Shown here piece after piece: positions 36,173 to 55,602 of a DNA stretch of 64,000 nucleotides. Numbering within the stretch: the first letter of the stretch is position 1; each line of letters opens with the position of its first letter. Source of the stretch: Pseudophaeomoniella oleicola (taxonomy: Eukaryota > Ascomycota > Eurotiomycetes > Phaeomoniellales > Phaeomoniellaceae); the NCBI GenBank assembly GCA_003868215.1, contig QWDQ01000025.1, positions 273,073-337,072 of the forward strand, in the 5' to 3' direction. The notes under the pieces were generated by a model. It saw only the letters and a list, made by a program, of their open reading frames with translations, made no database searches and was not told where the DNA came from. A program made the position numbers and the translations under genes.

Positions 36173-37264
36173 TCATACCACTATGCGCTCTGCAGGTGGA
36201 GTATTTTGAAGCCAGCCTTCTACATTTTCCTTCGTCATCCGTTGTAAGCCGTCCGTGGTGGCTTTGCTGCACCAAGCTACGTGGGGACTCACAATCAAGG
36301 ATAACGTTTTGCTCAGTCCATTGTCCGCCAGCGCCGTCAGAAGTACAGAGTTCTCTGCTCCAGCGGGCTCGTTAGCAAAAACGTCAGTGGCAGCCCCCGC
36401 AATCGCTCCAGTCCTGAGAGCTTCCAACAAGCCTGTTTCATCAACAATGCCGCCACGGCTGACGTTGATGAAGATAGCGGAAGTCTGCATCTTCAAGAAC
36501 TGGGCCATTGAAAACAACCCGAGAGTATCGGGGTTGCGTGGCAGACAGAGGAAGATGACAGTAGCGCGGCCCAGTACTTCCTCGAATGGTGTTCTCTGCT
36601 GGTCTACTGTAGATGTATGTGACGGTCGTAAGCGATCCGCAATCAGGACCCTCATCCCAAGCGTACTACAAATCGAGGTTATCTGCTGACCTGCATGTTT
36701 CGTATCAGTTCAGCTGCCATGGGCGGTGGCTATCACTGATAATTTCAACGTACCTACTGCACCATAGCCAAATAGACCTACCACTTCGTCTTGCCATGAT
36801 AAAGGGGCTTGTCCGCTTTGATTGTCCAGTGTTTTGATGAGAGTTCCTTGTTGTAGCCATCGTCCCTGTATGGTGGCATGGTGCAATTGTATGAGCTTCC
36901 GCCTCGACGCAAAATACAGCGTCATCGCATGTTGAGCCACGGCGTCCTTGTTAACGCCCGGGCAATTAAGGACCCGAATTCCTCGCTTCCTGCATGCGGC
37001 AGTGTCAATGCAATCAGTACCTACCGACATTACCACAATGAGACGCAGCGCAGGTGTGACTTCTGCCGACAGGGAAGTCGCATCCAGAGGATATGTGGTG
37101 ATGAGTATTATATCGGCATTGTGAACGCGCTGGTGAAGCAGGTCTGGGTTGCCCTTGGGTGTAGAATGGTACTTGTCAAGTTTGTAGGATCCTTCCGGTA
37201 GGTCAAACTCGGGTATAGGACAGAAGAATTCTTCCAATGCGACAATCTTCCACTGACGCTCCAT
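36173..37264 (-). CDS. D-isomer-specific 2-hydroxyacid dehydrogenase
   Basis: NAD(P)-dependent oxidoreductase that interconverts a 2-hydroxyacid and a 2-oxoacid (glycerate/hydroxypyruvate-type family). Two exons, 37264-36754 and 36690-36173, with a 63-nt intron; 342 aa, the usual family length. Substrate-domain landmark: VMSVGTDCIDTAACRKRGIR with VLNCPGVNKDAVAQHAM. The nucleotide-binding Gly motif is VGLFGYGAVGQQ; the intron cuts its last Gly codon. Catalytic region: FINVSRGGIVDETGLLEAL (Arg), DVFANEPAGAE (Glu), IVSPHVAWCSKATTDG (His). All three catalytic residues are present. It is the first gene of the accessory segment and faces the NCS1 permease divergently, with a 783-base spacer. Its role there, possibly reducing a 2-oxoacid from ring cleavage, is inference. 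Confidence 0.88.
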
Positions 37265-38047: not shown

Positions 38048-39963
38048 ATGGAAGACCAGGAGAAGAACGGCGAGATCATAGACACCTCGCCCACCCGATA
38101 TGCTGTCGAACAAGGGACCATGGAGGAGCTTGCGACCGCGACTCCTGCAACAAACATGCTGCAGAGGTTTGCGAATCGGCTGGACAGCCTCGCCGGCGTT
38201 GAGGCTCGAGGTATCGAGCGCGTTCCCGCAGAAATGCGGCATCGAAAAATGGCCATGAAGGATTATTTCGGAATGGGTGTGATGTGGTTCAGTATCAAGT
38301 ATGTCGAAGGCCTCGTCAACGACGAACCTATCCGCTGATATGATGCCTTCAGTTGTACGGCCAACCAGATGAGTCTGGGTATCTTAGGGCCAATCGCCTA
38401 TAACTTGGGTTTCGTGGACAGTGTGCTGTAAGCGAGACGATGTGAAGCACAATCCGCACGACCAGTGGCTGACAAGGCTCTGAGGGCAGACTGTGTATGT
38501 TCGGAACCATTCTTGGCGCGATATGTGCTGGTTATCTTGCAAGTTTTGGTCCAATCTCTGGTAATCGAACGCTCGTCATTGCTGTCTGTACAGGTCTTCT
38601 CCTATACGATGTATGTCAATGCTGATGAGTCACAGAGGTATTCGATGGGCTGGTGGCCGTCAAAGCTCTGTGTAATCCTCAACTGGGTCATCGAGATCGG
38701 CTACGGTCTAGTCGACTGCCTGATTGCTGGGCTTCTCCTTTCTGCAGTTAATGGACAGGGCATGTCAGTCATCGTCGGCATTGTCATATCCGCGATCATC
38801 ACGGTAAGATCATCTGAACTTACCCTCCAGGTGGCCATCTAACTGTCATAGTGGGTAGTGGCGACATTTGGCATCAAATGGTTCCATGCATTCGAGAGGT
38901 ACGTAGTATTCCACGATCTGCAGTATACATCTAGGCTGACCGTTATATCTTGAAGATGGGTTGCTATCCCGACGATATTGATCCTTTTTATTTTCATTGG
39001 ATGCGCTGCTCCGTACTTCGATACCCACACTCCCAGCTCAGGCAGTGGTGCTACCCTTGCAGGAAATCGTGTCAGCTACTTTTTCCTCACCATGTCAGGT
39101 CCACTGGGTTGGGTGCCAGCAGCGGCTGACTTCTTCGTCTACTATCCGGAGAACACATCTCGAAAATGGACGTGTTTTATGACTGCTTCCGGAATCACTT
39201 TGGGGAAGCTCCTCATCGAATTCCTTGGAATCGGACTGGGCTCTGGCCTCATGATGAACTCTTCCTGGTCCACAGCATACGAGGGCTCTGGAGTAGGTGC
39301 GCTCATCGTTGCTGGCTTTGCACCCTTACAGGCATTCGGCAAATTTTGTGCTGTCGTCCTTGCGCTGGCTGTTGCCGCGAACAACATCCCGGGGACATAC
39401 GCTGCAGTATGTATTATAACCTCGAGTTATTTCGGTTGCTGATCAGCTTCAGGCTTTGAACTTCCAACAGCTCTTCAGTGTCCTCGCCAAGATCCCGCGC
39501 CCTATATGGAGCACTGTGGCCACAGTCATCTACCTGGTGTGTGCGATTGCGGGCCGACGACATCTTCTCACGATCTTCCAAAACTTCCTTGCTCTGATTG
39601 GGTATTGGGTTATGATCTGGGTAGCTATAGCTGTTGAAGAGGAATTCATATTCCGTCGCAAGAAGGGATTCAACTGGAATGACTGGAACGATAAGACCAA
39701 GCTCCCTGTCGGTATTGCCGCCTTTATCAGTTTCCTCGTCGGCTGGGCTGGCGCCATTGTCTGTATGGGTGAGACATATTATTACGGGCCAATCGCTAGC
39801 ATGGTAGGAGAGGCCGGTGCGGATGTAAGTTGTGCTGCCGAGAGACCTCATAGGGAACGTTTTGCTAATCTGTGAACAGCTCGGTCTTCCTGTTGGGTTT
39901 GCATGGGCAGCAATCGTCTTCCTTCCACTCCGTTACCTCGAGTTGAAGTATGTCGGTCGCTAG
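38048..39963 (+). CDS. NCS1-family nucleobase/vitamin permease
   Basis: Sodium- or proton-coupled transporter of the NCS1 (cytosine-purine-allantoin-vitamin, Fcy2/Tpn1-like) family in the plasma membrane. Eight exons: 38048-38298, 38353-38427, 38490-38583, 38636-38803, 38852-38898, 38956-39406, 39453-39824 and 39880-39963. All phases agree; 513 aa. The N-terminus ends GIERVPAEMRHRKMAMKDYF, the family lead-in. TM1 reads GMGVMWFSINCTANQMSLGI. Then come LGFVDSVLLCMFGTILGA, ISGNRTLVIARYSMGWWPSK (the RYSMGWWPSK motif between early helices), VNGQGMSVIVGIVISAIITW, NRVSYFFLTMSGPLGWVPAA, ANNIPGTYAAALNFQQL, and the C-terminal helices ending LPLRYLELKYVGR. About 12 hydrophobic segments are present. The sequence is closer in motif style to the Fcy2-like purine-cytosine/B6 permeases than to the uracil/allantoin Fur type, so the substrate could be a nucleobase, vitamin or related heterocycle. 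The intron after NRTLVIA uses a GTCTGT donor. Confidence 0.9.
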
Positions 39964-40710
39964 TAATGGACAAGGGATTACAGGCCGTCCCGTTTACCAC
40001 ATTAATTAACACGTTAGAGACAATACATTTCAAAGACGATGTAGAGCAGCATCTGGTAGAAATCAATATACAGAATACCACTTGTTTTTACCATCTGTCA
40101 TAGGTATTCAGTAATTAGTAATTATTCAGTATTTATGAAATCACGGGACTTCAGCCGAGACGGTTCCCACCAATAAATATTACTTTGTAATTTCATTCAA
40201 GTATCAAGTATTGAGACCACCAACCATCCTTCTTTGGACGAAGAGTGCCAATACCTTCGCCCAGATCAGACAGTATTACTTAGGCTGGATCAGATATACT
40301 CTACATGTTACTGCAAAGCGACACGACGGTATCAGCCGAGGTTCCTTATCTCTTGTATCCTTTCGGGGTGGACCTCCGCCTGATGTGGGTAACTTATCCT
40401 GAGCCTGCCGGGCCTCAACAAGGAGCCAATGGAGTCGCTCGACTTAGTGTTCCTTGTTGCTGGCTCGTGGAAATCCATGGTACTATGTAGTACTACGTAG
40501 TACTATGTAGCACAGATTTAGTTCGTCCATGGATCTGACGAAGAGAAGCCATCGCGGGACCCTTCACGGAGCACCGCGCTCAGCGGGCAGTGTGCGCCGG
40601 CTGGCAACAGTAATATCAATGAGAAGTTTCCTTTCGACTTCCAAGATGCACAGCTTCAGGATACCTATTTGACTCAGTTAGAGCTCGATTTACCGAGCAT
40701 TTTCTGTACC
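39964..40710. other. Promoter region of the FAD monooxygenase
   Basis: About 750 bases after the permease. The three 10-bp repeats at 40481-40510 lie about 200 bases before the monooxygenase start. No coding signal in the remaining sequence. Confidence 0.55.
40481..40510. promoter_or_regulatory. Triple 10-bp repeat TACTA(T/C)GTAG, palindromic core
   Basis: TACTATGTAG, TACTACGTAG and TACTATGTAG occur head to tail without spacing at 40481, 40491 and 40501. Bases 40488-40505 form a perfect 18-bp palindrome (TAGTACTACGTAGTACTA). A 10-bp period places identical bases on the same helix face, as expected of a cooperative regulator site, and it sits about 200 bases upstream of the monooxygenase ATG. 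The binding protein is unknown, and a chance simple repeat remains possible. Confidence 0.5.
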
Positions 40711-42066
40711 ATGGCTTTTGCAGACAAGAGAATAGCCATCGTGGGCGGCGGCCTGGGAGGCATGTCCTTTGCCAATGCCGCCATCTATGCCGGGCTGACC
40801 AACATAAATGTCTACGAGCAGGCTCCTGAGTTTACAGAGGTCGGTGCTGGTGTCAATATCACGAGAAATGCAAACCGCATCCTCGATGCCTACGGATTGA
40901 AGGATGCTATGCTGGAGAAGTCTTCACACAACCCGCCTAGTTACATGGACTACTACAACTATAAAACAGGAGAGTTCGTCGGAAGGATCGAGGAGTTTGG
41001 AGAACCTCGGTCCCGACAGATACATCGAGCTCATCTGCTAGATGTTCTCAGACAGCGTGTGCCGACGTCAGCTCTCCATACCGGCAAGCGCCTGAGATCG
41101 ATCCAACACGACGGCTCGGAGTACGTCCTTACATTTGAAGACGATACTACAGCCTCAGCAGATATTGTCGTGGGGTGTGACGGCATCAAATCGGTGGTCA
41201 GAAAGCACCTAGGGATAACAGACCACCCGATATATTCTGGTCAGATGGTCTACCGGGGCTACGTTTCATATGACGACCTGTCTCCCGAGACGGCGGCATT
41301 ATTTAGGAAAACCGTTGTCTTCCGTGGGAAGCAAAAACATATCCTCACTCTCCCGATTGGCAATGACGAGTTCAAAAACAGCAGAGTCGGCGTCATCGCC
41401 TTCGTCACGGAGTCACTGGACTCCTGGAACTCCGAAAGCTGGTTAGGAAAGACAACGATTGACAGTCTTCACAAGCACGTCGAGGACTGGGCGCCGCCTT
41501 GTCAGGAGCTCATCGAGGGTTTGCGGAAATACTACCCGGATGGCTTGATGTTGAAGCAAACGCTGTACGTGAGGGAGCCGGTGGACAAATGGTTTGAGGT
41601 CGACAGCTCGCGGCCGGATCAAGGCATCATACTTGTCGGTGACTCTGTACACTCGACACTTCCCCATCAAGGTGAGCTGCATGTAGACTTCCTCTCATGA
41701 CTCGTACTGATTTCGACAGGTCAAGGAACAGGCATGGCCATCGAATCAGGTTTCGCCCTAGCCACGATCCTCCGCAACTGGAAGTCCGACGACCTCTCCT
41801 CCGCTCTACAACTGTACCAGCAGATCAGAAAGCCGCGCACAGACAAAGTCACCAGAACAAGCGCGGAGGCCGGCAAGTTGGCCTCTGCGGATGTGCCGGA
41901 GCAGAACGTAACGGCTGCATTCAACCCGCAGGCGCTACGGGAGAGGATGAAGTGGATCATGGAGGGAGATATATTAAAAGACGTTTACGATAGAGGCGCT
42001 CCGTTCTTTGTGTCGCAGAGTGATGGGATTGCAAGCTCGGCGGGCCAGGTACAATCTAGTTTATAA
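40711..42066 (+). CDS. FAD-dependent aromatic monooxygenase (salicylate hydroxylase-like)
   Basis: Class A flavoprotein monooxygenase that would hydroxylate an aromatic or heteroaromatic ring with NAD(P)H and O2. Two exons, 40711-41671 and 41720-42066, in phase; 435 aa. The dinucleotide-binding motif IVGGGLGGMSFANA is at residues 10-23. The mid-protein DG motif VVGCDGIKSVVRK (Asp157-Gly158) contacts FAD and NAD(P)H, and the second FAD-binding GD motif is ILVGDSVHSTLPHQGQGTGM (Asp311), where the intron cuts the Gly codon after HQ. VYEQAPEFTEVGAGVNITRN and RQIHRAHLLDVL are typical of the salicylate 1-hydroxylase and 6-hydroxynicotinate 3-monooxygenase group, in which hydroxylation may be decarboxylative. 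In many members GD is followed by A-H; here it is S-V-H. The C-terminal half is helical with an ending unlike typical members. It lies downstream of the permease in the same direction. Confidence 0.9.
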
Positions 42067-42324
42067 AGGAATTGTCGATGTGGGAGCGTTGATAGTGTAG
42101 GGTGACTGCTGAATATAATATCATAGAGATGCGGTTTAAGAAACAAGAAACAAGCCCCCTTCCAATACACTACGGAGTCCATTGAGGGTCCTTATGATAC
42201 TGTACCCTATCATATTCTAGTCATAATATACTGCACTCGATGCCAGATGGCCATGGTAGGTAGAGGAGTAGTTATGAGTCTATTGTGGAATCCAGTGCCT
42301 CCTTCCCATGGCCATCTCCTCTTT

Positions 42325-43427
42325 CTACGTAAGTTTCCGTTCGAACTCCTGCGACTCGGATAACTGCTTCTCGATCGCGTCGGCAACCGCACCCTGCAAG
42401 GTGGTCATCTTACCCCGCGCCTGCCCCATATCGATCACATCGTTATCCGTCTGCTCATACACCGTCCCTCCTTCTGCCCAGATCCTCCTCAAGGTGATCA
42501 GAGTGGCCAAAGGGTTCCCCGAGTCCCACGCTTCCTTTTCTAGCTGTCTGAGCTCGTCGAGAGATGTATAGGAGACTTTCCATGGTTGGCCGCCGGTCTG
42601 GGTTTCGAACTCGGAGAGGAGTTCCCGATCGGTCGTGTAGAATGAATTGACCTTCAAGGCGCGGTTGCGAGATTGGTCGGGGTGTAAGAGGGCGGCGAGA
42701 ACGAGATTCCCTACGCTGTGGGAACTGTCAGCTAGCTACTCCTTTTCCCCCTGTTCACTTGCCGGAGAGGAAGAGGAACTCACTCCTTCATCATGGTCAA
42801 TCCGATCTTGAGATTTCCATCTCCAAGCAATACCGCACTCTTGTTCTTCACATCAAAACTCCCCGTCCTTGTTGCACCAAGGTTCGAACTGAGATACAGA
42901 CCGGCATCCCCATCCCCATACGGTCCAGTCACCACGTAGGTATAATCCATCAACCCGGAAACCTCCCCGATCGTCTTGCGCACCTTGAGCTTTCTCTGGT
43001 GCGGGACTTCTGTAGCCGAACCAGGCCCATACTCTACGTCCGTCCCATATTCGGATGGAAAGAACCATTTCCTCATCTCTGTTTTCGTTTCGCCAGCTGC
43101 CGCGTGGGGTTTAGGAGCATTGGCGAAGTGTTGGATGAGTCTCGTCTGCTCCGCGATCATGTTCCTGCCCAGACACGAGATTACCGTATCAATGCCCACG
43201 TACGCGTTCTTGACGTCGTCGTCATTCTGTAAATCGCCTATGATTACCTTAACCCCCTCCGCTTTTAGAGAGTCGATATCAGCCCCCTTCCGAGTCACCG
43301 TGTCGGCTGATGTGAAGATGGTGATTTGCTTAAAATGGTGCTTGCCCTGAACGAGAGCACGGGTGATGTGTCGTCCTATGAGACCCGTAGCACCGAAGAT
43401 GAGGATATTCTGAGCACAGGGAGCCAT
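42325..43427 (-). CDS. NmrA-like / isoflavone-reductase-type NAD(P)-binding protein
   Basis: Atypical short-chain dehydrogenase of the NmrA-like family (PCBER/isoflavone reductase group): either a reductase of aromatic-type substrates or a redox-sensing regulator. Two exons, 43427-42784 and 42715-42325, in phase; 344 aa. The Rossmann start ILIFGATGLIGRHITRALV carries the GATGxxGR pattern typical of NADP binding. Next are VKVIIGDLQNDDDVKNAYVG and DTVISCLGRNMIAEQTRLIQ, then KWFFPSEYGTDVEYGP, which places a Phe/Pro-Ser-Glu-Tyr-Gly-like motif where the substrate-facing loop is. The C-terminal exon is helical and charged. The gene reads towards the FAD monooxygenase (stops 260 bases apart). Catalytic activity is not certain, because some relatives act as negative regulators. 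Confidence 0.85.
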
Positions 43428-44016
43428 GATGCTCTCGTAGCTCGTCTAAGTGTTTGATGGTGGCTGATATTGGTAGGAAGCGCTCAAGGAATACTACCTC
43501 TAAGGCACCTAGGTAGGCGGATATAAAAACAGTAAATATGGTATAATGGCTTTCTTGAAGGGTATATTCAGATTCAGTTTCACGTGCATATGGAATCTAG
43601 GAGTATATTTCTCATTCACTCCCCTTGAAGCTCATGATGGCCTATGAACTAATTTGTTGGGTACAATGTTGTGCCATACTCCTTCCTTTCGGACTGTTGC
43701 CAAGTGTATGGGAGTGTGCGCTTACCTCCGAATGATCATGCAAGACCACGCCCAAGGCCGAAATTGTTGCAATGAATACTCCACTGATCCACCATGTCCC
43801 ATAAGTGGCACGATCTAGTCCGCCGAAGATGATAAGGAACTCACCCTTCTCATGTAATTACGCTGGCCGCGGAACAGTCGAGACCTTGTCTTGGTATAGT
43901 GTCGGAACGGGTTGGATATCAGAGTGCAGTGACAATTCTATATGGCAAGAGTGTCGGATGAGCCGAGGGAAGTCGCAGAGTCGTAATGACTGAGGGTCAG
44001 ACATCAGAATGGTTGT
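43428..44016. other. Intergenic between NmrA-like gene and regulator 1
   Basis: About 590 bases, upstream of the NmrA-like start and downstream of the regulator stop. It contains CCGCGGAAC at 43867-43875, the same nine bases as in front of the permease. Nothing else recognised. Confidence 0.5.
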
Positions 44017-46147
44017 TCAAAAACTGGCATGCTGCTCAAAATTAATCGCATAATCATCTTGCAGTATGGAATGGTCTGCCTTGTCCCAAGTCCATTCGTA
44101 ATTGTCCGTAGATTCGAACATGTTGGAGAATGCATCGTCCCAAGTCACAATTTCAGTGTCGAGTGCCTCAACGGATGTAGTAATGTTGGATTGATTACCG
44201 AACTGCAGGTAGTCCAAGTGAGCTGGCCCAGGATAGAGGTACCGACTGAGCTCCGCATCATACTCCGGAGGATATATGATGGCCGAAGAGTGAGCACCTT
44301 GCAACAAGGCATCCAGTAACGGCGCCAGCAGCCTCTCAAACCGTGCAGCGAACTTTGTGATCTCTGACCATCCCTGCCCAGAAATGTGCAGAAGGTTCGT
44401 CGTGAACGACTTCATCATCTCAAAGATGTCTGCGACAGAAAAACGTTCGACAATGTGCTCGAAGATCGTACGGAGGCTGAAAAGGGCGACCATTGCAGAC
44501 TCAGCGGTGTGATGTGCTGCCAACCAAGGCCGCCTGACAAACCCATATAGAATTTTCTCACGGTATATCCGAGCAGAATCACAAGCAGCTTCGAACGCGA
44601 TCACCAAGCTCGCCACCGATGGGTTAGACATTCGAGGGGAAGGTCGATGGAGACTGATGAGCCCATGGACCAAACCGAACTCGGCCTGAGCCTCATTTAC
44701 CGAGCGGCATTCTTTGTACCATTTGCGGAGCGACTGTTCGGTTTCTACGAGCCAATCGTCCCATTCCTGGCCATCGCCAAGGGTCTTACCTTGGAAGTGG
44801 ACCTCAGTTATGATTGACTGCAGCCGACAATATCGTATCAGGTGGAGTCCAGGGCTGCTCCCGATGGTCATCGATGGCACATTGTTCCCCGTCACAGGAT
44901 CTCTGGGATCGAGGAACGGGTATTGCGTGTTGATTGCCGGATCAGGAATAGACAATGGTCTCTGTAGGGCCGAACATATGGTCCGATCGACGCAGTAAGC
45001 CATCCAAAAGATTCGCCGTCTGAGATCAAGGGACGTTGTATCCGGATGGATTGCCTTTCTGGTTGGTTCTCGATGGAGGCCAAGTTCCAGACATGAACGC
45101 ATTGCAGCTCCGCTCAATACCCAGACATTGGCGCATTTGGGATTTATTTCAGCATATTGAAAGATCAACAATGTTGCTTGAACGCCAGCTAGGTCATTAG
45201 GGAATGGCGCTTTGTTGCATAGATGTTGGATACCCTCCTTGAAAAGGATTTCCGAGAACGCCATACACCTCGACTCGTGTCGGCTCTTAGCACAGCCAAG
45301 CGTTGCGGATATTGCTAGGACAGTATAGACGACCAAGTGCTCGTATGTTGGCTCGATCCGGTGCACAGACTTGGGCATTGACTGATCGATATCGTTGCCT
45401 ACAGATGCAAGCACTTTGTCCACCTGATCCCAGAGAACAGATTCGACAATGAATGGCATCGTCGGAAGCAGCCGCTGCACGTACTTCCTGACGAGGATGA
45501 TTACAACGTGCGACGGCAGGCTCGCTAGAGCACTACACTCGACGAGCACACTGTCGGTACTGGGCGGGATGGCAGAAGCTGTCCTAGGAGAAGCACCTGC
45601 TTTGTACACTGGCAATATGAATGACGGAGTGAGTCCCATCCTGACCCTGGCTACCAGATCGATCGGGGTTGGTCCAGTGGGCATTGTCGCGCTAATCATC
45701 TGCTGTAGCTCGGACCGTTCAATGATCTCCTCAACAGCAGAGTCAAATCCTTGCTCTGCATAAGCATCGTGAGCTCCGAGTAACTGGGCGGCCTCTGTCA
45801 ACGCAGAAAGGCCGCCTTGCGCATGGTTGTCGGTGTGGACATGATGAGGAGGATGTTGCTGTAGCTCCTTATTCGTCACTTGCTGTTCTTCAAGACGAGC
45901 AATTTCCGCTTCCAGATAGGCGATGATGGACCGTGGTACCTCGACACCATCTATCGAGTTATGGCCAACACACTGCACGCCTGCAGCGGAGCACTGCGAG
46001 CAGCTAGGTGTTTTGCGATCACACTGTTACCATCCGTCAACTGCAACGTACCAGAGCCATGTATGGGAGAGACCGTACTTTTATCTTTCGCTTGCGACAC
46101 CTTGCACAAGATACTACCCTACGATGGCAATCTGTCCCCGGATCCAT
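44017..46147 (-). CDS. Zn2Cys6 transcription factor, cluster regulator candidate 1
   Basis: Fungal binuclear-zinc-cluster regulator. Exon 1 (46147-46079, MDPGTDCHRRVVSCARCRKR) and exon 2 (46023-44017) are separated by a 55-nt intron inside the zinc cluster. The joined motif reads C14-x2-C17-x6-C24-x6-C-x2-C-x6-C (CARCRKRKIKCDRKTPSCSQ then CSAAGVQC). Total 691 aa. After the cluster comes a short linker-dimer helix (RSIIAYLEAEIARLEEQQVT). The middle homology (fungal-specific TF) domain contains LTYE-like RIEPTYEHLVVYTVLAISAT, VWVLSGAAMRSCLELGLHRE and RRRIFWMAYCVDRTICSALQ with RPLSIPD. The C-terminal tail is acidic. It shares about 300 bases of divergent promoter with the M20 amidohydrolase gene, which points to it as a pathway-specific regulator. 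Confidence 0.92.
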
Positions 46148-46448
46148 TGATTGCCATTGTTCTGCATCTCCATAGATGATGAAGATGAAATGGGAGGAGA
46201 AATGGATGAGGAGTGATAGTGACTGGACTCGGCGATAGTAACGTAGTATGAGTATGATACAGCAGTGGACGGTGGGGAAGTGTGCGCGCAGCTCCGGCGG
46301 CGTAGGTTCCTGAGGTGCCTTTCCCTGAACACGTACATTATCATCAACCGAGGAATACTTAGACCAATGATTCCGTTGATGATGCTCTGTCCAGTACTTT
46401 TCAAATTTCGTCCTTGTGACACAGTTGGTGACGACAGTCGATTCGACA
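46148..46448. promoter_or_regulatory. Divergent promoter, regulator 1 / M20 amidohydrolase
   Basis: The 301 bases separate the ATG codons of two divergent genes. A GC-rich CTCCGGCGGCG block at about 46291-46301 contains CCG and CGG half-sites of the kind bound by Zn2Cys6 factors, so auto-regulation and joint induction are plausible; binding is not shown. Confidence 0.55.
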
Positions 46449-48019
46449 ATGGGTCTCAAGAACACTGTGCTGCCGCTGAATGCGACCTATGCCAAACTCA
46501 GGACCAATGCCTCGCGCATGAATACTACGCTCCAGGATTCCTGTCAATGGGGAAGGTGAGTGCTCAGATCTAAGACACTTGTTCATGAAGCTAACAGTGT
46601 ATCCCAGCACATCTGATGGGGGAATGAGTTCGGATACCTATTGAAGACGTCTGAAGAACATCCGCTAACATATTCAGATCGTCTGGCGTCGAATGATGAT
46701 GACAAAAGAGTCCGAGACTGGTTCATCGAAGTGACCAAGGAATGTGGCTGTTTTCACAAGGTGAGCAAGTAACATGAACCTCATACCCTCCAACGATGAA
46801 TGCTAATAACAAATTCTGCAGATAGACCAAATGGGCAATATATTCGCCATCAGACCCGGTCAGAACAACGATCTGCCACCGATAGCGATTGGCTCCCATT
46901 TAGACACCCAGCCGACTGGAGGAAAATATGACGGCATCCTAGGTAAGGTAACAACCCATTCTTAGGGGACGAGCTGCTTACGACCTTGCTAGGTGTTCTG
47001 TGTGGCATTGAAACCTTGCGAGTACTACATGAGAACAATGTAACCACCTATGCTCCATATGCCGTGGTCAATTGGACCAATGAAGAAGGTGCCCGGTTTC
47101 CACCAGCGATGCTGGCTTCTGGAGTATGGGCTGAGGAGTTCACAACTGAGTATGGGCAATCTCGGAGTGATCTGGCAGGGATTACGCTGGGAGACGAGCT
47201 TAGGCGGATCGGCTATCTGGGTCCTGAGCCTTGCTCATACAAAGCCGTGCCTCTGCTGGCGCATTTTGAATGCCACATCGAACAAGGAACCATACTTGAG
47301 GAAAACAACCTTCCCGTGGGTGCAGTGAGGGGGGTTCAGTCCATCGGCTGGTACAACATCGACGTGGTCGGAAAGGAGTCTCATTGCGGATCAACGCCAA
47401 TGAACCGCCGAAACGATGGCCTATTAGCGGCGGCGAAGATAATTGTGGCCGTCAACCGTCTAGCTGCCGAGGGCGAATATTTTGAAAAGGGTTCTCGGGC
47501 AACGATTGCCGTTATCAACTCAGAACCTCAAAGTATCAATACTGTAAGCTCTTGGCTATCGACGAACTGTTTCCCAGTACTAACATGTTGCAACAGATAG
47601 CAGGCAAAGTTTCCATGTCCCTCGACGTCCGATGTGTCACAGACGAGGACCTAAGGAGTCTAGAGTGCTTGATCAGAGAAGCGCTGGAGAAGATCGCCAA
47701 GGAACACGGTGTGAGCGTGAACCTGAAGAACTTTTGGACTTCTCCAGGGATCGACTTCGACGATCTGATGGTCCAATGCATGCAGGTCTCGGCGGCCAGC
47801 GTAGGGTGTCACAAAACCTTAGTTAGTAGCGTTGGGCACGACAGTGTCTATACCTCGAAGCGAGTACCAACAGCTATGGCGTTCACGAGGTGTAAAGATG
47901 GTATCAGCCATAATCCAGCAGAGTATTCTACACCGGAGGATTGTGCGGTAAGTGCAGAAGTTATGCTTGGGGCCTATCTTAGATATGACGACCTCGTACG
48001 GGACAGTTATGGAGCATAG
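46449..48019 (+). CDS. M20 amidohydrolase (N-carbamoyl-amino-acid / beta-ureidopropionase type)
   Basis: Zn-dependent amidohydrolase of the M20/ArgE family that hydrolyses a C-N bond in N-carbamoyl or ureido acids. The closest known fungal relative in type is the yeast PYD3-like beta-ureidopropionase; allantoate amidohydrolases are also related. Six exons: 46449-46555, 46608-46627 (20 nt), 46678-46760, 46822-46942, 46993-47543 and 47597-48019. All phases agree; 434 aa, the usual size. Metal and catalytic motifs: GSHLDTQPTGGKYDGILGVL (His, Asp), NWTNEEGARFPPAMLASGVW (Glu-Glu), HFECHIEQG (His), GKESHCGSTPMNRRNDGLLA (dimer-interface/substrate region), SSVGHDSVYTSKRVPTAMAF and KDGISHNPAEYS (C-terminal His). 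The micro-exon restores TSDGGMNRLASNDDDKRVRD, matching the family pattern. All metal ligands appear intact, so an active enzyme is expected. It faces regulator 1. Confidence 0.9.
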
Positions 48020-48467
48020 GACGGTCATTATGTTTCACAGCAACAGACTCATGAGTAAGCTGCTGTCGACATATATGCATATATACCGACTTCCCTACCC
48101 TGATATTGTCTCATAACAAGATTCATGTATACATTGTGAGCTGGTTAGCACCAATGCATCTAACCCGTCTCTATCCCAGACGGGATTGTCTTATCGACCC
48201 CAGAATTAATCAAATAGTGATTGGAATCAGCACCCGTGGCTGTATAGGTGGTCTCGCCGCTCTTCGTGGCCGAGCGATAAGAGCGATGCTGGAAGAACTG
48301 GTTCGGAGGAGGGCGCTCACCTTAGTGAATGGACTTGCCTCATCTTGTACACAGAGCGATCCCTCCTCGATACGTCCGTCGTCCTTGGACATAGAAAACA
48401 TAAAATATATTAAACACAGCAACAGCCATAGATCCATTCCTGTGTATAGAATATCAAATCATCCGAA
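48020..48467. other. Intergenic, promoter of the aldolase-like gene
   Basis: About 450 bases between the M20 stop and the aldolase start. Nothing recognised. Confidence 0.55.
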
Positions 48468-49491
48468 ATGTCGCCGGCAGCCATCACCAAATATGAGGAG
48501 GCTCCAAGTGGAAATCCTGACTTGGCCTTCCCTCAAGACGATGTGATGTCGCCACCAGCGTTCAAAGACAAGTACGAAGAACGCAGATATCTCAAGCACA
48601 GACTCGTTCTGGCTTTCCGAGTCTTCGCTCAATTCGGTTTCGCCGAGGGTGTGGCTGGCCATATCACTCTGAGAGACCCCGTTGACCCCGAATGCTTCTG
48701 GGTTAACGCGTTCGGTAGCAGACACAGTCTTCTTGACAAGCATATATGCTGACTTTTGCTCAGGTCAACACTTTTCCTGCATCACGGATGACGATCTCAT
48801 TCTGGTGACTTCGCAGGGCGAGGTGATCGACGGTGGAAAGAACAGAAGGCTCAACTACGCGGCGTTTGCGATACACTCCGAGATCCATGCTGCTCGTCCA
48901 GATGCCGTCTGTGCGGCACACTCCCACAGTACCTACGGAAGAGCCTTCTGCGCAACTGGACGTGAATTAGACATGCTGACGCAGGACTCTTGTGTTTTCT
49001 ACAACGACCATGTTCTATACGAGTAAGACTTTCGGACTGAATGGATCGTCAGAAGGCTAAATATTTTCAAGCAACTTCGCTGGACTGGTCCTCTCCTCCG
49101 AAGAGGGCAAGCATATCGCCAAAATTTTGGGAGGGAAGAAAGCGGCATTGCTCGGCAACCATGGCCTCCTGACCGTCGGGCGCACCATCGAAGAAGTGAC
49201 GGCCTGGTTCGTCCTTCTAGACAAATGTTGCAAGGTTCAACTTCTTGCCGATGCTTCCAGTGCCGGCAGCGGTAGACCTCTAGTCAAGATCGGAGAAGCA
49301 GAATCCCAGACAACCTGGACTGCGCTTGACGGCAATGGTAGAGGTGGCTACTGTAAGTTCACGTTCACGAATTTTATGACACCGCGACGATCTAACAAAT
49401 ATATTCAGTTATGGGTCTGCCTTTGTTCCAGGTCGCAGAAAAGGAATTGGGGGAGAGCACTTTCCTGGGCCGGGGGATTGAGCCACTATAG
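48468..49491 (+). CDS. Class II aldolase/adducin-domain protein (Mug14-like)
   Basis: Zn-dependent aldolase-type fold (class II aldolase/adducin family), which in microbes cleaves or epimerises sugar phosphates or oxo-acids; the fungal group is often called Mug14-like. Four exons: 48468-48714, 48764-49022, 49072-49352 and 49409-49491; all in phase, 289 aa. Motifs: KHRLVLAFRVFAQFGFAEGV, AGHITLRDPVDPECFWVN, FGQHFSCITDDDLILVTSQ, and the metal-binding pair in AAHSHSTYGRAFCATG (HxH). The third His region reads GNHGLLTVGRTIEEVTAWF. The His ligands look intact. The C-terminal MGLPLFQVAEKELGES and the terminal GRGIEPL resemble other fungal Mug14-type proteins. It lies between the amidohydrolase and the extradiol dioxygenase in the same direction; a role in splitting a ring-cleavage product is inference. 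Confidence 0.88.
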
Positions 49492-50294
49492 ATCTCGCCA
49501 TAGCTTTTATGTTTTTTTACATAGTTGGGTTCTGGAGGCAGGCAGACCATCGGACTCTTTATTTATATGTACATATAATTTCAGGCATTCACCCCTATAG
49601 TTTGCCTTCAACAAACAACCACCTCGATGATTTAGCTCCAAAGCTGTCTATAGACGAATGTGATACCAAGATCCTTGTTCTATTCGTGGCATTACTCTAT
49701 GTTTGGAAATTACAACATATCTATTTCAAGAGCTGGTCAAGACCCTTTCAGTAAGGCGTAGGCTCGTGGGATTGTTAACGGAATAGCAAGCGGGGTAACA
49801 AGATGATCGTAGACTCATCGTTGGGTCACAGTCAAGTCGTGCTAGATTTGTCCATGGATTCTCCAGTGACGGTGTCACTTACCTTAGTACTCAGCGGGAC
49901 CAATAGAGACTCACTGGACGTAATATTATCTTCTGTTTGTTGGTGGCGACGACTTGGATGCTGCGGAGGCCCTTTCAAGGATGTGCCCGCCCCCACCGAA
50001 CGCGCAACGCCGAATGTTGCTCCTTGAGGTCAAGTCCGCCGCTTGGTTCTTATCCGTACTCGATGCGACCATTGGACGGGCTCACCAACAGTCGAGGTCT
50101 GGTCTGCGGATAGATGCGATGCGAGTCCTGGAGCCATTGATAAGGAGCCATTTGCTCTATGGGATTGTGGGAGATGCCAGCACAACTTCATACCTTTGAC
50201 AATCATCTTCGAAATACATTTAGTATCGATTGTCCTCGCCAATCTATATCTCTACACTGAATCAACTGTCCGCGTCCGTTGCAGCGTATCCAGC
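49492..50294. other. Intergenic, promoter of the LigB-type dioxygenase
   Basis: About 800 bases. A frame open from 50043 continues into the dioxygenase, but without a splice or family reason to extend the protein; I start at the ATG at 50295. Otherwise nothing recognised. Confidence 0.55.
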
Positions 50295-51323
50295 ATGGGC
50301 AAAGTCGTCGCCGCTGTTGGCTTGTCCCATGCGCCAGGGGCTTTGGCATTCCCAGAGACTGCAAAGCCAGAACATCGTACAGGTACCGAGGCTGCGACCC
50401 GTGCATTGGGGTTTCGACTTGAATCGGCAAAGCCCAATGTCATCTTTGCTTTCCTCGATGATCACTTCGAGAACTTCTTCCGCAACCTGTGCCCCAGTGT
50501 CACCATGGGTATCGCAGAATCACATGTCGGCCCGGCAGACCAGTGGATGGAGACTTTACGGATCAAGGAGAAGACGGTATTCCCCGGTGCACCAGAAATA
50601 GCAGAGAAAGTCCTCGCCTCGATGGTCGCTCAGGGCTTCGATATTGCTCGTGCTGGACCATGCGAGTATGGAAACAACCTTCTCATGCCTTGGAAGTTGA
50701 TGGGCGTTGAGGAGTCACTCAGTGATGTTCCAATTGTCCCGATATTCATCAACGTCTTCACGCCACCATTGATCCCATACGCCCGCGCGTACGCGCTTGG
50801 TGCAGCTGTGCGACATGCCGTTGATACTGTGCTCCCAGACACCACGCGCGCGGCATTCATATGTACCGGCGGTCTCTCTCACTGGCCGCCCTATTGGAAC
50901 CCTGTTCAGGGCGGTGATCCACCATCTGACCCATTCCTTCAACGTATCAAGCGCTATCAGACCGAGGGCAAATCGTATCTGAAGCAAGACCCTAAACTCT
51001 TTGTCGACTTTGATGACTACGAAGTCGAAATGGCGGCCAAGAACGAGTACCCTCTGAATTCCAAGCACCCTCTCGTGAATGACGCCTGGGACCGAAAATT
51101 CATGGAACATTACAGCAATGGAGACAGCGAATGGATGAAAAATTTGACGTATGAAGAGGTCGAAGAGGAGGCGGGTCACGGCGGCCACGAAGTGTTGAAC
51201 TGGGTCGCCATGCTGGGTGCCATGAAAGGCGCCAAAAGTAGAATGCTCCTATATGAACCCGTCATTGAATGGATTTGCGGAATGGTTTACCAGGATTTTG
51301 AAGTTGAGGGCTTGCCGAACTAG
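50295..51323 (+). CDS. LigB-type extradiol ring-cleavage dioxygenase
   Basis: Type III (LigB/protocatechuate 4,5-dioxygenase beta-chain) Fe(II) dioxygenase that opens an aromatic diol ring next to the hydroxyls. Single exon, 342 aa. Expected iron and acid/base residues are in place: His12 in VGLSHAPG; His57 in FAFLDDHFENFF; the catalytic-type His196 in CTGGLSHWPPYW; Glu299 in GHGGHEVLNWVAMLGA. In Sphingomonas LigB the iron ligands are His12, His61 and Glu242, with His195 acting as acid/base, so His12 and His196 sit at matching positions while Glu299 lies after a 50-residue insertion (GKSYLKQDPKLFVDFDDYEV and following). No separate LigA-like chain is nearby; the C-terminal part may supply the equivalent function. 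Substrate unknown: catechol-, gallate- or dihydroxypyridine-type all fit. Confidence 0.88.
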   Translation: MGKVVAAVGLSHAPGALAFPETAKPEHRTGTEAATRALGFRLESAKPNVIFAFLDDHFENFFRNLCPSVTMGIAESHVGPADQWMETLRIKEKTVFPGAPEIAEKVLASMVAQGFDIARAGPCEYGNNLLMPWKLMGVEESLSDVPIVPIFINVFTPPLIPYARAYALGAAVRHAVDTVLPDTTRAAFICTGGLSHWPPYWNPVQGGDPPSDPFLQRIKRYQTEGKSYLKQDPKLFVDFDDYEVEMAAKNEYPLNSKHPLVNDAWDRKFMEHYSNGDSEWMKNLTYEEVEEEAGHGGHEVLNWVAMLGAMKGAKSRMLLYEPVIEWICGMVYQDFEVEGLPN

Positions 51324-52124: not shown

Positions 52125-54120
52125 ATGTCGGAATTGTCACAACAATCACCAACACCAGATCCAGGATTACTAACACAAACTTTGTCCGACTCCCCAACCC
52201 CGCGAGCAGAGGTATCCGGGGAGCAGACTATTGTTCAGGCTGCACTCAAGCTATTGCCTGCATGCCAGAGGTGTCGAAGGTTGCGACGAAAATGTGACCC
52301 TTCGCTGCCTACCTGCAGGCAGTGCCTGAAAAGCGGCTCCGAATGCTGCTTCTACGACCATTCACTGCAGCAGATATTACCACGTAGGTCAGTATTGGCC
52401 CTCGTGGGATGAACAATGCACAGTCGCTCACGTGGAGAAATGCAGTTATGTCAAGTCACTCATAGATCGGCTCCATCTGTTGAAGCAAGGGAAGCCCCAG
52501 GATTCCGTCGGTACTGCAACTTCGGAAGAGAAGCCATCTGCATTGCGTCCTGCAGAAACCTCTAAAGCTATAGAAGTCTCGCCGGATGAATCTCCCAAAA
52601 CTCAAGGGGTGTTGAAGCACTTGAGGGACGACCATTATCTGATTCCGACAGCATCTGGACTCAAGACCAGATATTTTGGCCGCAGCTCTGTCTTCTCTCT
52701 TACCGTCGAGGTTCTTGCACGCGCGCAGTCCGAGTACCCTACTGCAGAGGCATCGATCGATGCAAATCTGGCTATGACCTGGGGCCCTCGAGAGTTCCAC
52801 GACGGTTTCAACTGTACGATCACGGAAGATCTCATTCGTTCCTCGACCGTCCTCTACATGTCATCCATCAATACACTGTATCCCTTCTTGGATGCAGTGG
52901 TCGTTCAAGACAGCATGGAGACTTACAGGCAACTACAGCATGCGGGACGCGACCCGGCAACGCGAGACGAGGCATTCGAGTTCTTCCGGATCTCAATCAT
53001 AATGGCAGTGGCATTTGCTAGCCGATCTCGTCACAATCCGAGCTGGATTGTGTACGACAATGCATGTTACCTGCAAGCGGCTCGGTTCATTGAGACCGTC
53101 ACCTCGGAGATCTCTGTCCAGTCTCTGCAAGCGCTGATGTTGCTCATCATATACTGCCTTTTTCGACCAAGGAAAGGAGATATTTGGAAACTGCTAGATT
53201 ATGCTTGCCGCTTGAGCATCGAATTGGGTTTCCATGCGGAGCATCCAAATCCCGAAGACGGTAGTGGTGTCCAGGAGACCCGGAGGAGTACCTTCTGGTC
53301 ACTCTACACCATTGAGAGAATTGTTGGTCAGATATTCGGCCGACCTTCAGACCTGCCGGAAACAATCTTTACGACCAAGTATCCCGACGTCGCCGGTGCA
53401 ACCGAGCTGGAAGGTGAGGATATGGCGCAGAGATTCTCTGCTGCTCACCATTATCGCCTAGTATATTTACGCTCTGAAATATATAAGGAGATGTACCTTC
53501 CAAGTACCCCTCCACAGCATCCACTCGAGTGGTACGAGACGCGTCTGGTACCGATTCTGGAGTGGTATCGGAGAACAAAGACGACTAAGCCGGAGGTTCA
53601 CCTAGAAGGTGTTGGAACCGTAACCTGCAGTGTCGCTTTCCATTCGACAGTCATCTTCATCTTCCAACCCATCATGCTCCACCTGCTGCAGGCGACTCGG
53701 GACAAGCAAGATTTAATCAAGACTTTTGAACATGTCCCAGAGGATAGCTTCTATTCTGCATGCCGTTTGATACAAGTCTATGATAAGGTGGTCCGTTCAA
53801 GAGAAGAATCCGTTCTGGGAACGTATCCGATGACCTTCATGAGCGCTCACTACTGCTGGATCGCTGCAATGACCATCATGGCACATTGTTTGCTCCTCTT
53901 GGATGGAAGAGTGACACCGAAGAGACTAGTCACAGATCCACGGCTTCTAGAGGAGACCGATAATATCAGTATCTCTAACATTTTTGAGATATCCAGCTCG
54001 TGCCTTACCTTACTCATGTTCTGTGCTGAGCAATGGCCTGGCATGATGGGCATGGTGGATGTATACAAAAGGCTTTCCTCTCGTATCCTTCCTGGCATTG
54101 TCAAGAAAGGCATCATCTGA
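52125..54120 (+). CDS. Zn2Cys6 transcription factor, cluster regulator candidate 2
   Basis: Second fungal zinc-cluster regulator. Exons 52125-52387 and 52446-54120 (58-nt intron), 645 aa. The ATG at 52125 (MSELSQQSPTPDPG) is used because the open frame 9 bases upstream starts with TTG. The cluster is C47-x2-C50-x6-C-x6-C-x2-C-x6-C (ACQRCRRLRRKCDPSLPTCR then QCLKSGSECC), and the intron lies shortly after it. The middle homology domain includes FRISIIMAVAFASRSRHNPS, LLDYACRLSIELGFHAEHPN and ETRRSTFWSLYTIERIVGQI then FGRPSDLPE. The cluster pattern and the fungal-TF domain are complete. It follows the dioxygenase in the same direction and could regulate the cluster or the neighbouring pectinase; which is not shown. 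Confidence 0.92.
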
Positions 54121-55602
54121 GAGTATTTACCTTGCTACGAAATGGACTACCGATCGAGACGACCTCTCCCCTTAGCTATCATGTCGGTGCATGTCGGTGC
54201 GATTAACAGCATCACTAAACAATCTGCCAAGTTCCTGACTGGTTATAAGATTTGGACATCAATCCTGATGTCTCTTTTCGACTGGCCTCTGAGATCCCTT
54301 GCCGCTGCAAGTCTGTTCACACTATACTTCACATAGGATGACTTCATACCTTAAAGCGCATATGGAAATGTGTGGCGCTGACATGGTTTAAGAGAGGTCA
54401 TTTCGCTGGCATGGAGTTTGTTAGCATGGGACTGGATGCTTGCTGTGGTTGAGAGAGGCTCCGTCGCCTACATGCAAGAGCAACAACATCCTCCGAGGTC
54501 TTGCCTCTAAGATCATCGCCTACCAAGGAGTTCCTAACCAATCCTTGAACTAGCCATCTTGACAAAAAGATTGGGAGCATATATCCAGTCGGAAGGAATG
54601 TGGAAAAAGCTTGACTTTTCACACCAATTGTGTTCACCATTCCAGCCTTTAGAGACCCCATCCCAAGAGGTATCTTGGTGACAGTTTTGACACCATTCCG
54701 AACTGAGAGATCCAGTCCTCGAGTCAATTTCCCTCCAATCCACACCCTTCCACGCATTATATTACAAGAAGCGGTCTTTTCAAACCTGTTTATCGTCTGT
54801 AGCGTCATATGCCTATGGGTGAGTGAGACATCTGGTGAGCTGCAAGCCATTCGAGACAAGTTTGAGCCTATCAGGATACTATTGGATTGCTGCTCAGCCG
54901 AGGCATTGCTAGGAGGTTTGTGCCTAGATGGATCCCTTTGATCAGTCAGTAAATTAACATTACTGCTCGTTTATCTTGTTCATGCTTAATGTTTTGAAAC
55001 ATTGAAACACGCAATGGCATTTACTTGAAACGAAAAAGGGGCCGTCATAATCTCTTATCTTGGTTTAGGCTCTCTTGGCTCTACTTGGCATGTCTTATTG
55101 GCAGTGCCTGATGGTTCCTCACGAGAAAGTAACTCTCTGGAATCATGTAAGGACAACGAGATGCAAAATGATCGATAGACGTCATATAATCAGTTGACCA
55201 TGGTCCGAAAAGATTGTTCTTGCTTTCAGTATCATTATTGGGGCCACATGTGCGCAAACTGCCCATCTTGGTCCAGCATCGCTTCCTAATCCGACCAGGA
55301 GTGGTGGATAAATAATGAATCCATGCAACAACCATGACAGTAGTCTATCAGAAACACCTTTTGGTTGTTTTGACAATATTCCGAACCCTTCAACTTTTAT
55401 CTCCTAACCTACCAGTGGATAGGTGGTTACGATGTGTCTGATTTCTCCGCACAGCTCTGATGCTGGTCTTCCGGACTGATTTAATCCGCTTGAGTACAGA
55501 AGATGAACCGGCCATAACCTGTTGTCCTCCTCCCTATACTGTTTCCTTTGCTTCAAGTCATTCGTTTATGCATTTCGTTCAGTGATTCTCATTCTTCTCA
55601 AC
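54121..55602. other. Intergenic, one doubtful minus frame
   Basis: About 1.5 kb before the pectinase gene. Apart from the doubtful frame listed at 54398-54850 nothing is recognised. It should contain the pectinase promoter. Confidence 0.55.
54398..54850 (-). CDS. Doubtful hypothetical protein, 150 aa
   Basis: Minus frame from the ATG at 54850 (MACSSPDVSLTHRHMTLQTI) to the stop at 54398. It has a mildly hydrophobic patch (YMLPIFLSRWLVQGLV) and a basic Ser-rich end, with no known motif and no paired splice signals. An overlapping plus frame (54630-54941) is equally open. Either or both may be chance. Confidence 0.25.
   Translation of the reverse strand: MACSSPDVSLTHRHMTLQTINRFEKTASCNIMRGRVWIGGKLTRGLDLSVRNGVKTVTKIPLGMGSLKAGMVNTIGVKSQAFSTFLPTGYMLPIFLSRWLVQGLVRNSLVGDDLRGKTSEDVVALACRRRSLSQPQQASSPMLTNSMPAK

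What the first reader, a model, noticed from the sequence alone, without database searches (positions are those of the whole stretch)
38048..51323. Possible catabolic cluster for a nitrogen-containing aromatic or heterocycle
Within 13 kb lie an NCS1 permease, a class A FAD ring hydroxylase, an NmrA-like reductase, a zinc-cluster regulator, an M20 C-N hydrolase, a class II aldolase-type protein and a LigB extradiol dioxygenase; a 2-hydroxyacid dehydrogenase and a second regulator flank them. The gene models look intact. The set forms a plausible route: import, hydroxylation, extradiol ring opening, amide/ureido hydrolysis, then aldol cleavage and oxo-acid reduction. The combination of extradiol cleavage with a C-N amidohydrolase suggests a ring nitrogen. 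I know no fungal cluster with this exact make-up; the nicotinate (hxn) and uracil pathways use other enzymes. Substrate and order are inference.
Basis: partly seen in the sequence, partly recalled or inferred. Interest (0 to 1): 0.8.

Follow-up and report, generated by a model that had tools for sequence, protein, structure and literature searches.

The report
Fungal pyridine-ring degradation gene cluster
This stretch of fungal DNA holds a conserved set of genes that looks like a fungal version of a bacterial pathway for breaking open nitrogen-containing pyridine rings, with the ring-opening gene probably descended from a bacterial one.

Summary
In detail: nine intact genes lie at the stated places. 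Part of the set is conserved. Of 23 named fungal LigB hits, 13 list an M20 and/or FAD homologue on the same contig, 7 list both; locus tags are 1-12 apart in four. A Diplodia gene model fuses the aldolase-fold protein to LigB. In print, Ophiostoma piceae has an M20, Gal4-type regulator, class II aldolase and isoflavone-reductase (NmrA-type) cluster strongly induced on pine sawdust; no LigB is listed there.

The LigB is about 50% identical to bacterial PydA-type enzymes (3,4-dihydroxypyridine dioxygenase, mimosine pathway), has its catalytic residues, and the fungal proteins form one branch among bacterial ones. In bacterial loci an alpha/beta hydrolase follows; here an M20 amidohydrolase seems to replace it, as fits an N-formyl amide. 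NCS1 permease plus PF01494 hydroxylase resemble the Arthrobacter 4-hydroxypyridine cluster.

Best reading: import, 3-hydroxylation, extradiol pyridine cleavage, deformylation. Substrate and every reaction are inferred. NCS1, the dehydrogenase and regulator 2 are untested in relatives. New variant of a known kind.

The parts
36173..37264 (-). D-2-hydroxyacid dehydrogenase, 342 aa, exons 36754-37264 and 36173-36690; flanking, membership of the cluster unproven
   Evidence: PF00389, PF02826
38048..39963 (+). NCS1 permease (PF02133), 513 aa, 8 exons; proposed importer
   Evidence: (TIGR00800 150.7 bits, below its cut-off 353)
40711..42066 (+). Class A FAD monooxygenase (PF01494), 435 aa, 2 exons; proposed ring 3-hydroxylase
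42325..43427 (-). NmrA-like NAD(P)-binding protein, 344 aa, 2 exons; role unknown; an isoflavone-reductase-type gene is co-induced with M20 in Ophiostoma piceae
44017..46147 (-). Zn2Cys6 regulator 1, 691 aa, 2 exons; 301-bp divergent promoter shared with M20
46449..48019 (+). M20 hydantoinase/carbamoylase-type amidohydrolase, 434 aa, 6 exons; proposed deformylase of the ring-opened product
   Evidence: (TIGR01879 350.6 over cut-off 204; NF006769 453.7 over 452)
48468..49491 (+). Class II aldolase/adducin-fold protein of the PRK06208 subfamily, 289 aa, 4 exons
   Evidence: (NF004855 316.4 over cut-off 255)
50295..51323 (+). LigB extradiol dioxygenase of the PydA/PRK13373 clade, 342 aa, single exon; His12, His57, His196 and Glu299 at the catalytic positions
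52125..54120 (+). Zn2Cys6 regulator 2, 645 aa, 2 exons; flanking

Best explanation
A fungal catabolic cluster for a 4-hydroxypyridine-type heterocycle. Proposed route: the NCS1 permease imports the compound. The FAD monooxygenase hydroxylates it at C3, giving a 3,4-dihydroxypyridine; being salicylate-hydroxylase-like it could also do this by replacing a carboxylate, for instance on 4-hydroxynicotinate. The PydA-type LigB enzyme cleaves the ring next to the diol, as proposed in bacteria between C2 and C3, giving an N-formyl enamine keto acid. The M20 amidohydrolase removes the formyl group, the job of an alpha/beta hydrolase in bacteria. The remaining amino-oxobutenoate loses ammonia to 3-formylpyruvate, which the class II aldolase-fold protein and the dehydrogenases carry into central metabolism. 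Shown: the genes, their families, catalytic residues, linkage of LigB, FAD and M20 in other fungi, and the bacterial kinship of LigB. Inferred: every reaction, the substrate and the order.
For: LigB is 49-52% identical over 92-98% of its length to the six best plasmid hits, five of them from rhizobia; the next hit is 32%. In the four annotated ones I fetched of these six, the gene is followed by an alpha/beta hydrolase, ABC transporter, FAH-family hydrolase, RidA and pyruvate carboxylase, including a Leucaena isolate. PydA primers were built on DDHFENH and EWICGM (PMC3637104, passages); the window has DDHFENF and EWICGM. Iron-ligand and acid/base positions are kept (roles recalled). The model (pLDDT 90) matches MhpB, DesB, LigAB. 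M20 and/or FAD share contigs with LigB in 13 of 23 named fungal rows; unnamed rows repeat it: LigB, M20 and FAD all list a 27,111-base contig, LigB and FAD a 5,469-base one. Of 18 bacterial loci with this LigB, two have a PF01494 monooxygenase directly downstream (L010, L012) and one 9 kb away (L006). The Arthrobacter 4-hydroxypyridine cluster pairs a permease of the cytosine/purine family with a PF01494 3-monooxygenase (PMC7356986, passages). M20, regulator, class II aldolase and isoflavone reductase genes are co-induced in Ophiostoma piceae, log2 fold 9.85, 6.74, 9.97 and 6.49 (PMC3680317, section 9).
Against: The Ophiostoma cluster lists no LigB, and none of the 120 listed LigB rows is from Ophiostoma piceae or Grosmannia, though both list M20 and FAD on one contig: the core may work without this ring opener, and sawdust does not point to pyridines. 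The fungal LigB branch is sister to an alphaproteobacterial PRK13373-type protein of unknown substrate (99/98), not nested in the rhizobial PydA branch; it misses the PRK13373 cut-off (412 against 462), as does the CB3060 protein (427.7). The 8.5-kb locus L007 near that sister has Rieske subunits and no FAD or M20 hit. In Phaeomoniella chlamydospora, the closest relative, the best FAD hit (71%) is on another contig than LigB and M20. Ten of 23 LigB rows show no listed partner on their contig. The FAD enzyme is only 26-29% identical to the bacterial ones near LigB, less than to a paralogue in its own genome (34%).
Confidence: 0.45

Rival explanations
1. The ring cleaved is carbocyclic, for example a wood aromatic. 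The M20 enzyme acts first, releasing an aromatic acid from an N-acyl or amino-acid conjugate; the FAD enzyme, as a salicylate hydroxylase, makes a catechol that LigB opens.
For: The FAD enzyme is closest in the PDB to salicylate hydroxylases (6bz5, 5evy), and many fungal homologues are named salicylate hydroxylase. LigB matches MhpB, gallate and protocatechuate dioxygenases by fold. A related M20-aldolase-reductase cluster is induced on pine sawdust.
Against: LigB is twice as similar to PydA-type proteins (about 50%) as to E. coli MhpB (25.9%). TIGR03219 salicylate monooxygenase scores 185 against a cut-off of 446. No alpha/beta or FAH-type hydrolase for a carbocyclic meta-cleavage product is among the nine genes. 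The M20 is of the carbamoylase subfamily.
Confidence: 0.25
2. The pathway handles a substituted or carboxylated pyridine (a hydroxypyridine carboxylate, a B6-like or NAD-derived 4-pyridone); the class II aldolase-fold protein is a decarboxylase rather than an aldolase.
For: The aldolase-fold protein matches NovR (215 bits) and TqaM (177 bits) and, weakly, 2z7b Mlr6791 (58 bits), recalled as a pyridine-dicarboxylate decarboxylase of vitamin B6 breakdown; NF053537 3,4-dihydroxyphthalate decarboxylase matches at 42 bits (cut-off 200). Salicylate-type hydroxylases decarboxylate ortho-hydroxy acids (recalled).
Against: Its best PDB match is a protein named fuculose-1-phosphate aldolase (238 bits). 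The ring-decarboxylase matches are weak. Class II aldolase-fold copies of 61% and 46% lie elsewhere in this genome, so the family is broad.
Confidence: 0.2
3. The working unit is FAD, M20, aldolase-fold protein, NmrA and regulator 1, opening a ring by another enzyme; LigB joins it only in some fungi, and NCS1, the dehydrogenase and regulator 2 are unrelated neighbours.
For: M20, regulator, aldolase and isoflavone reductase form a co-induced cluster without a listed LigB in Ophiostoma piceae. FAD and M20 lie two or three gene numbers apart in Exophiala spinifera, Verruconis and Meristemomyces, none of which has a listed LigB row. NCS1, dehydrogenase and regulator 2 are untested.
Against: LigB is linked to M20 and/or FAD in 13 of 23 named rows. 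The LigB list shows the best 120 of 428 hits, clustered at 90%, so a missing row does not show a missing gene.
Confidence: 0.25

Closest known systems
pyd genes of mimosine-degrading rhizobia (PydA 3-hydroxy-4-pyridone dioxygenase, PydB hydrolase)
   Same: LigB-family dioxygenase about 50% identical to the copies in rhizobial pyd-like operons, same catalytic positions and closing motif EWICGM; a hydrolase gene linked to it
   Different: M20 amidohydrolase instead of the alpha/beta hydrolase; NCS1 instead of ABC transport; no FAH, RidA or pyruvate carboxylase among the nine genes; fungal regulators
kpi cluster of Arthrobacter sp. IN13 (4-hydroxypyridine)
   Same: permease of the cytosine/purine family plus PF01494 FAD monooxygenase plus ring-opening enzyme plus hydrolase
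   Different: ring opener KpiC is an amidohydrolase-1 protein, not LigB; hydrolase KpiB is alpha/beta; FAH-type KpiD has no counterpart among the nine genes
Ophiostoma piceae sawdust-induced gene cluster 6 (PMC3680317, Table 4)
   Same: M20 N-carbamoyl amino acid hydrolase, Gal4-type regulator, class II aldolase, isoflavone-reductase-type protein side by side and co-induced
   Different: no LigB, FAD or permease listed in that cluster (an O. piceae FAD homologue is on the same contig as its M20); the paper assigns no pathway
hxn nicotinate pathway of Aspergillus nidulans
   Same: fungal cluster for a pyridine with FAD hydroxylase and C-N hydrolases
   Different: ring is partly reduced and opened hydrolytically by the cyclic imidase HxnM; no dioxygenase ring cleavage (PMC9304392, passages)
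NCBIfam PRK13373 (NF009913) putative dioxygenase
   Same: best family model for the fungal LigB over its whole length
   Different: score 412 is below the cut-off 462; function of the family not stated
NovR / TqaM class II aldolase-fold proteins
   Same: 177-215 bits to PDB chains; histidines aligned
   Different: NovR acts in antibiotic synthesis (PMC13111500, passages); TqaM's role is recalled; activity of the present protein untested

Membership tests
PydA, 3,4-dihydroxypyridine 2,3-dioxygenase | LigB (PF02900) fold with class III extradiol iron ligands and acid/base His | tested here: met
   (His12, His57, Glu299, His196; roles recalled)
PydA, 3,4-dihydroxypyridine 2,3-dioxygenase | Conserved motifs DDHFENH and EWICGM used to define PydA primers | tested here: inconclusive
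   EWICGM present; first motif reads DDHFENF (motifs from PMC3637104)
PydA, 3,4-dihydroxypyridine 2,3-dioxygenase | Groups with the dioxygenases of rhizobial mimosine-type operons in a tree | tested here: inconclusive
   same large clade, but the fungal branch is sister to an alphaproteobacterial PRK13373-type protein
PydA, 3,4-dihydroxypyridine 2,3-dioxygenase | Partner PydB alpha/beta hydrolase next door | tested here: not met
   an M20 amidohydrolase is there instead
PydA, 3,4-dihydroxypyridine 2,3-dioxygenase | Cleaves 3,4-dihydroxypyridine | not testable with these tools
   needs enzyme assay
kpi-type 4-hydroxypyridine cluster | Cytosine/purine-family permease plus PF01494 monooxygenase | tested here: met
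   kpi description in PMC7356986
kpi-type 4-hydroxypyridine cluster | KpiC ring opener of amidohydrolase-1 family (PF01979) | tested here: not met
   no such domain reported in the nine genes
hxn nicotinate cluster | Molybdenum nicotinate hydroxylase HxnS and cyclic imidase HxnM | tested here: not met
   no such domains reported in the nine genes
PRK13373 equivalog NF009913 | Score at or above 462 bits | tested here: not met
   412 bits
Salicylate 1-monooxygenase TIGR03219 | Score at or above 446 bits | tested here: not met
   185 bits
Hydantoinase/carbamoylase amidases TIGR01879 | Score at or above 204 bits | tested here: met
   350.6 bits
Class II aldolase/adducin subfamily PRK06208 (NF004855) | Score at or above 255 bits | tested here: met
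   316.4 bits

The most novel reading that the evidence does not exclude
A pathway in ascomycetes that opens a pyridine ring with oxygen, through a LigB-type dioxygenase taken once from bacteria, and in which a carbamoylase-type M20 amidohydrolase replaced the bacterial alpha/beta hydrolase for the N-formyl step. As far as my ten literature searches show, no such pathway has been described in a eukaryote.
Probability: 0.36. Interest if true: 0.75.

Novelty: new variant of a known kind. Interest (0 to 1): 0.6.

Why it matters
The known fungal nicotinate route (hxn) opens the ring by hydrolysis (PMC9304392, passages). A 2021 paper on Aspergillus niger states that in fungi only intradiol cleavage had been described, though it also cites older hints of an extradiol gallate route in A. 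flavus (PMC10512348, passages); a 2025 review calls extradiol enzymes less common in fungi (PMC12388069, one passage). Some eukaryotic extradiol-type enzymes are known outside LigB (recalled: homogentisate and 3-hydroxyanthranilate dioxygenases). A conserved LigB-type pyridine pathway in ascomycetes would add a second chemistry for breaking N-heteroaromatics in eukaryotes, give a case of a bacterial catabolic enzyme built into a fungal cluster, offer a function for an unexplained sawdust-induced cluster of Ophiostoma, and name a substrate class (4-pyridones, hydroxypyridones) on which fungi can be tested at once.

Tried and rejected
Gallate or tannin pathway: a search for A. niger ggaA papers found none; LigB scores 412 bits to PRK13373 but 75 to gallate dioxygenase. 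Nicotinate hxn: different enzymes. Salicylate clusters of A. nidulans and A. terreus (PMC7842363): the words extradiol, aldolase and carbamoyl do not occur in its main text. Shared promoter element: a crude dyad and k-mer scan over seven intergenic regions gave only one 10-mer, in three of seven; no shuffled control was run, so this shows only the lack of an obvious motif. Phage homologues of P0056: none. First genome-contig scan with the fungal protein alone: none; the second, with alignment A2, gave 16 loci.

Literature: ten searches of the CC-licensed PMC library. That its genes OPP_01495 and P0165 are one is inferred from the name and species. No other listed title or abstract described the cluster; subscription papers are not held, so absence from print is not shown. 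The original pyd paper is not held and is cited through two others. Seen: section 9 of PMC3680317; passages of PMC7356986, PMC3637104, PMC10512348, PMC9304392, PMC12388069, PMC7842363, PMC13111500; other papers only as listings.

Rows dropped: the tree used 19 of 23 named fungal rows (without P0020, a fused model, P0027, P0036, P0037), 6 of 7 named bacterial rows (without P0105) and 8 proteins from the 18 bacterial loci with this LigB. One intended outgroup (Novosphingobium HR1a) joined a bacterial row inside the tree, and three long branches make the root unsure. L022 (26% identity) was left out of the 18. Alignment A3 holds the window protein and 41 of the 120 listed hits. The listings show the best 120 of 428, 7964 and 269 hits, clustered at 90%, so co-occurrence counts are lower bounds; 'same contig' means the same listed longest-contig length.

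Full report
Setting. The window is part of a 26-Mb, 112-contig genome. The closest named relative of its LigB (91%) and M20 (85% over 91% of the length) proteins is the ascomycete Phaeomoniella chlamydospora, so the source is a fungus near that genus.

The genes. I rebuilt all nine genes with GT-AG introns. Every model is open and full length, with Pfam support and, for seven, NCBIfam comparisons. The order is: dehydrogenase (-), NCS1 (+), FAD monooxygenase (+), NmrA (-), Zn2Cys6 regulator (-), M20 (+), class II aldolase-fold (+), LigB (+), second regulator (+). LigB has one exon while NCS1 has eight and M20 six. To the right lies a pectinase gene; to the left an ORF that by eye is a DEAD-box helicase.

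A printed relative. [quoted passage not shown] That is the M20, regulator, aldolase and NmrA set of this window, co-induced. Ophiostoma's M20 and FAD homologues share a contig (P0165, P0283). No LigB is listed in that cluster, and no listed LigB row is from Ophiostoma. Exophiala spinifera, Verruconis and Meristemomyces also have FAD and M20 two or three gene numbers apart with no listed LigB. So either LigB is an optional part, or it was missed by the capped, clustered list.

What the LigB is. By profile it is best matched by PRK13373, under the cut-off. In plasmids the six best hits (49-52% identity) are one Novosphingobium and five rhizobia, from Leucaena, Acaciella, Desmanthus, Vachellia and Phaseolus; then identity drops to 32%. 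Four annotated loci I fetched of these six share one gene order: dioxygenase, alpha/beta hydrolase, ABC transporter, FAH-family hydrolase, RidA, pyruvate carboxylase. In CB3060 a PatB-type C-S lyase lies 15 kb downstream on the same strand, which fits mimosine breakdown; that this strain degrades mimosine is inferred, not shown by a call. [quoted passage not shown] The window protein carries the PydA closing motif EWICGM and DDHFENF in place of DDHFENH. Catalytic positions are His12, His57, His196 and Glu299 (roles recalled). The predicted structure (mean pLDDT 90) matches MhpB, DesB and LigAB.

Bacterial loci. Of 18 bacterial loci with this LigB held, none has a tblastn hit to the fungal M20, NCS1, NmrA or aldolase at E 1e-5 within the flanks held; three have a PF01494 monooxygenase hit, directly downstream in L010 and L012, 9 kb off in L006; L010 also has a weak dehydrogenase hit. 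In five of nine loci whose ORFs I listed, a hydrolase with the HGSGPGA motif is present (L006, L007, L008, L012, L020). L007 encodes an 87% relative of P0056, the bacterial sister of the fungal branch; its neighbours are Rieske alpha and beta subunits and the alpha/beta hydrolase.

Origin. In a 37-row tree all 20 fungal rows form one branch (100/100), sister to the alphaproteobacterial P0056 (99/98), with the other bacterial proteins outside. With the single exon this fits one transfer from bacteria to fungi. Long outgroup branches, one of which falls among the bacteria, leave the root unsure.

Mechanism. Cleavage of 3,4-dihydroxypyridine is thought to give 3-(N-formyl)-formiminopyruvate, on which a hydrolase, probably a deformylase, then acts (PMC7356986, passages). 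In the fungal set the hydrolase is an M20 enzyme of the carbamoylase family, whose kin hydrolyse linear N-acyl or N-carbamoyl acids (recalled); its metal and arginine positions are present (roles recalled). A C-N hydrolase makes most sense if the ring-opened product carries an amide, that is, if nitrogen was in the ring or attached to it. The NCS1 permease and PF01494 hydroxylase match the kpi cluster for 4-hydroxypyridine, where the permease is of the cytosine/purine family. The FAD enzyme's salicylate-hydroxylase character leaves open decarboxylating hydroxylation of an ortho-hydroxy pyridine acid. The last steps are the weakest: the aldolase-fold protein's best PDB match is named an aldolase, followed by NovR, an unnamed protein and TqaM; NovR/CloR is a three-His iron oxygenase that decarboxylates a 2-oxo acid (PMC13111500, passages), so an oxidative step on 3-formylpyruvate is possible.

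Verdict. The cluster and the ring-nitrogen idea stand up in part; the likely ring is of 3,4-dihydroxypyridine type, with a carbocyclic wood aromatic as the main alternative. I rate it a new variant of a known kind.

Noticed in passing
window 55507-57941 (+): One reading frame holds a pectinesterase domain followed by the start of a GH28 polygalacturonase domain that continues in the next frame: a putative fused pectinesterase-polygalacturonase.
   Followed up: partly
window 60742-63186 (+): An OPT oligopeptide transporter: PF03169 matched in the ORF 60742-62184; the ORF at 62575-63186 looks like its continuation by eye.
   Followed up: no
window 20266-22242 (+): A SET-domain protein.
   Followed up: no
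fungal proteins (Exophiala spinifera PV08_03970/03973, Verruconis gallopava PV09_08203/08205, Meristemomyces LTR85_006104/006106): FAD monooxygenase and M20 hydrolase genes lie two or three gene numbers apart in fungi with no listed LigB of this clade, so the pair may work with another ring-opening enzyme there.
   Followed up: partly
L007 1-8464: An alphaproteobacterial PRK13373-type dioxygenase locus with Rieske oxygenase alpha and beta subunits, an alpha/beta hydrolase and an arylmalonate-decarboxylase-like protein; substrate unknown.
   Followed up: partly
P0109 (Aspergillus insuetus): This LigB relative lacks the first His motif and the GGLSH motif, which may be a gene-model error or decay.
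   Followed up: no
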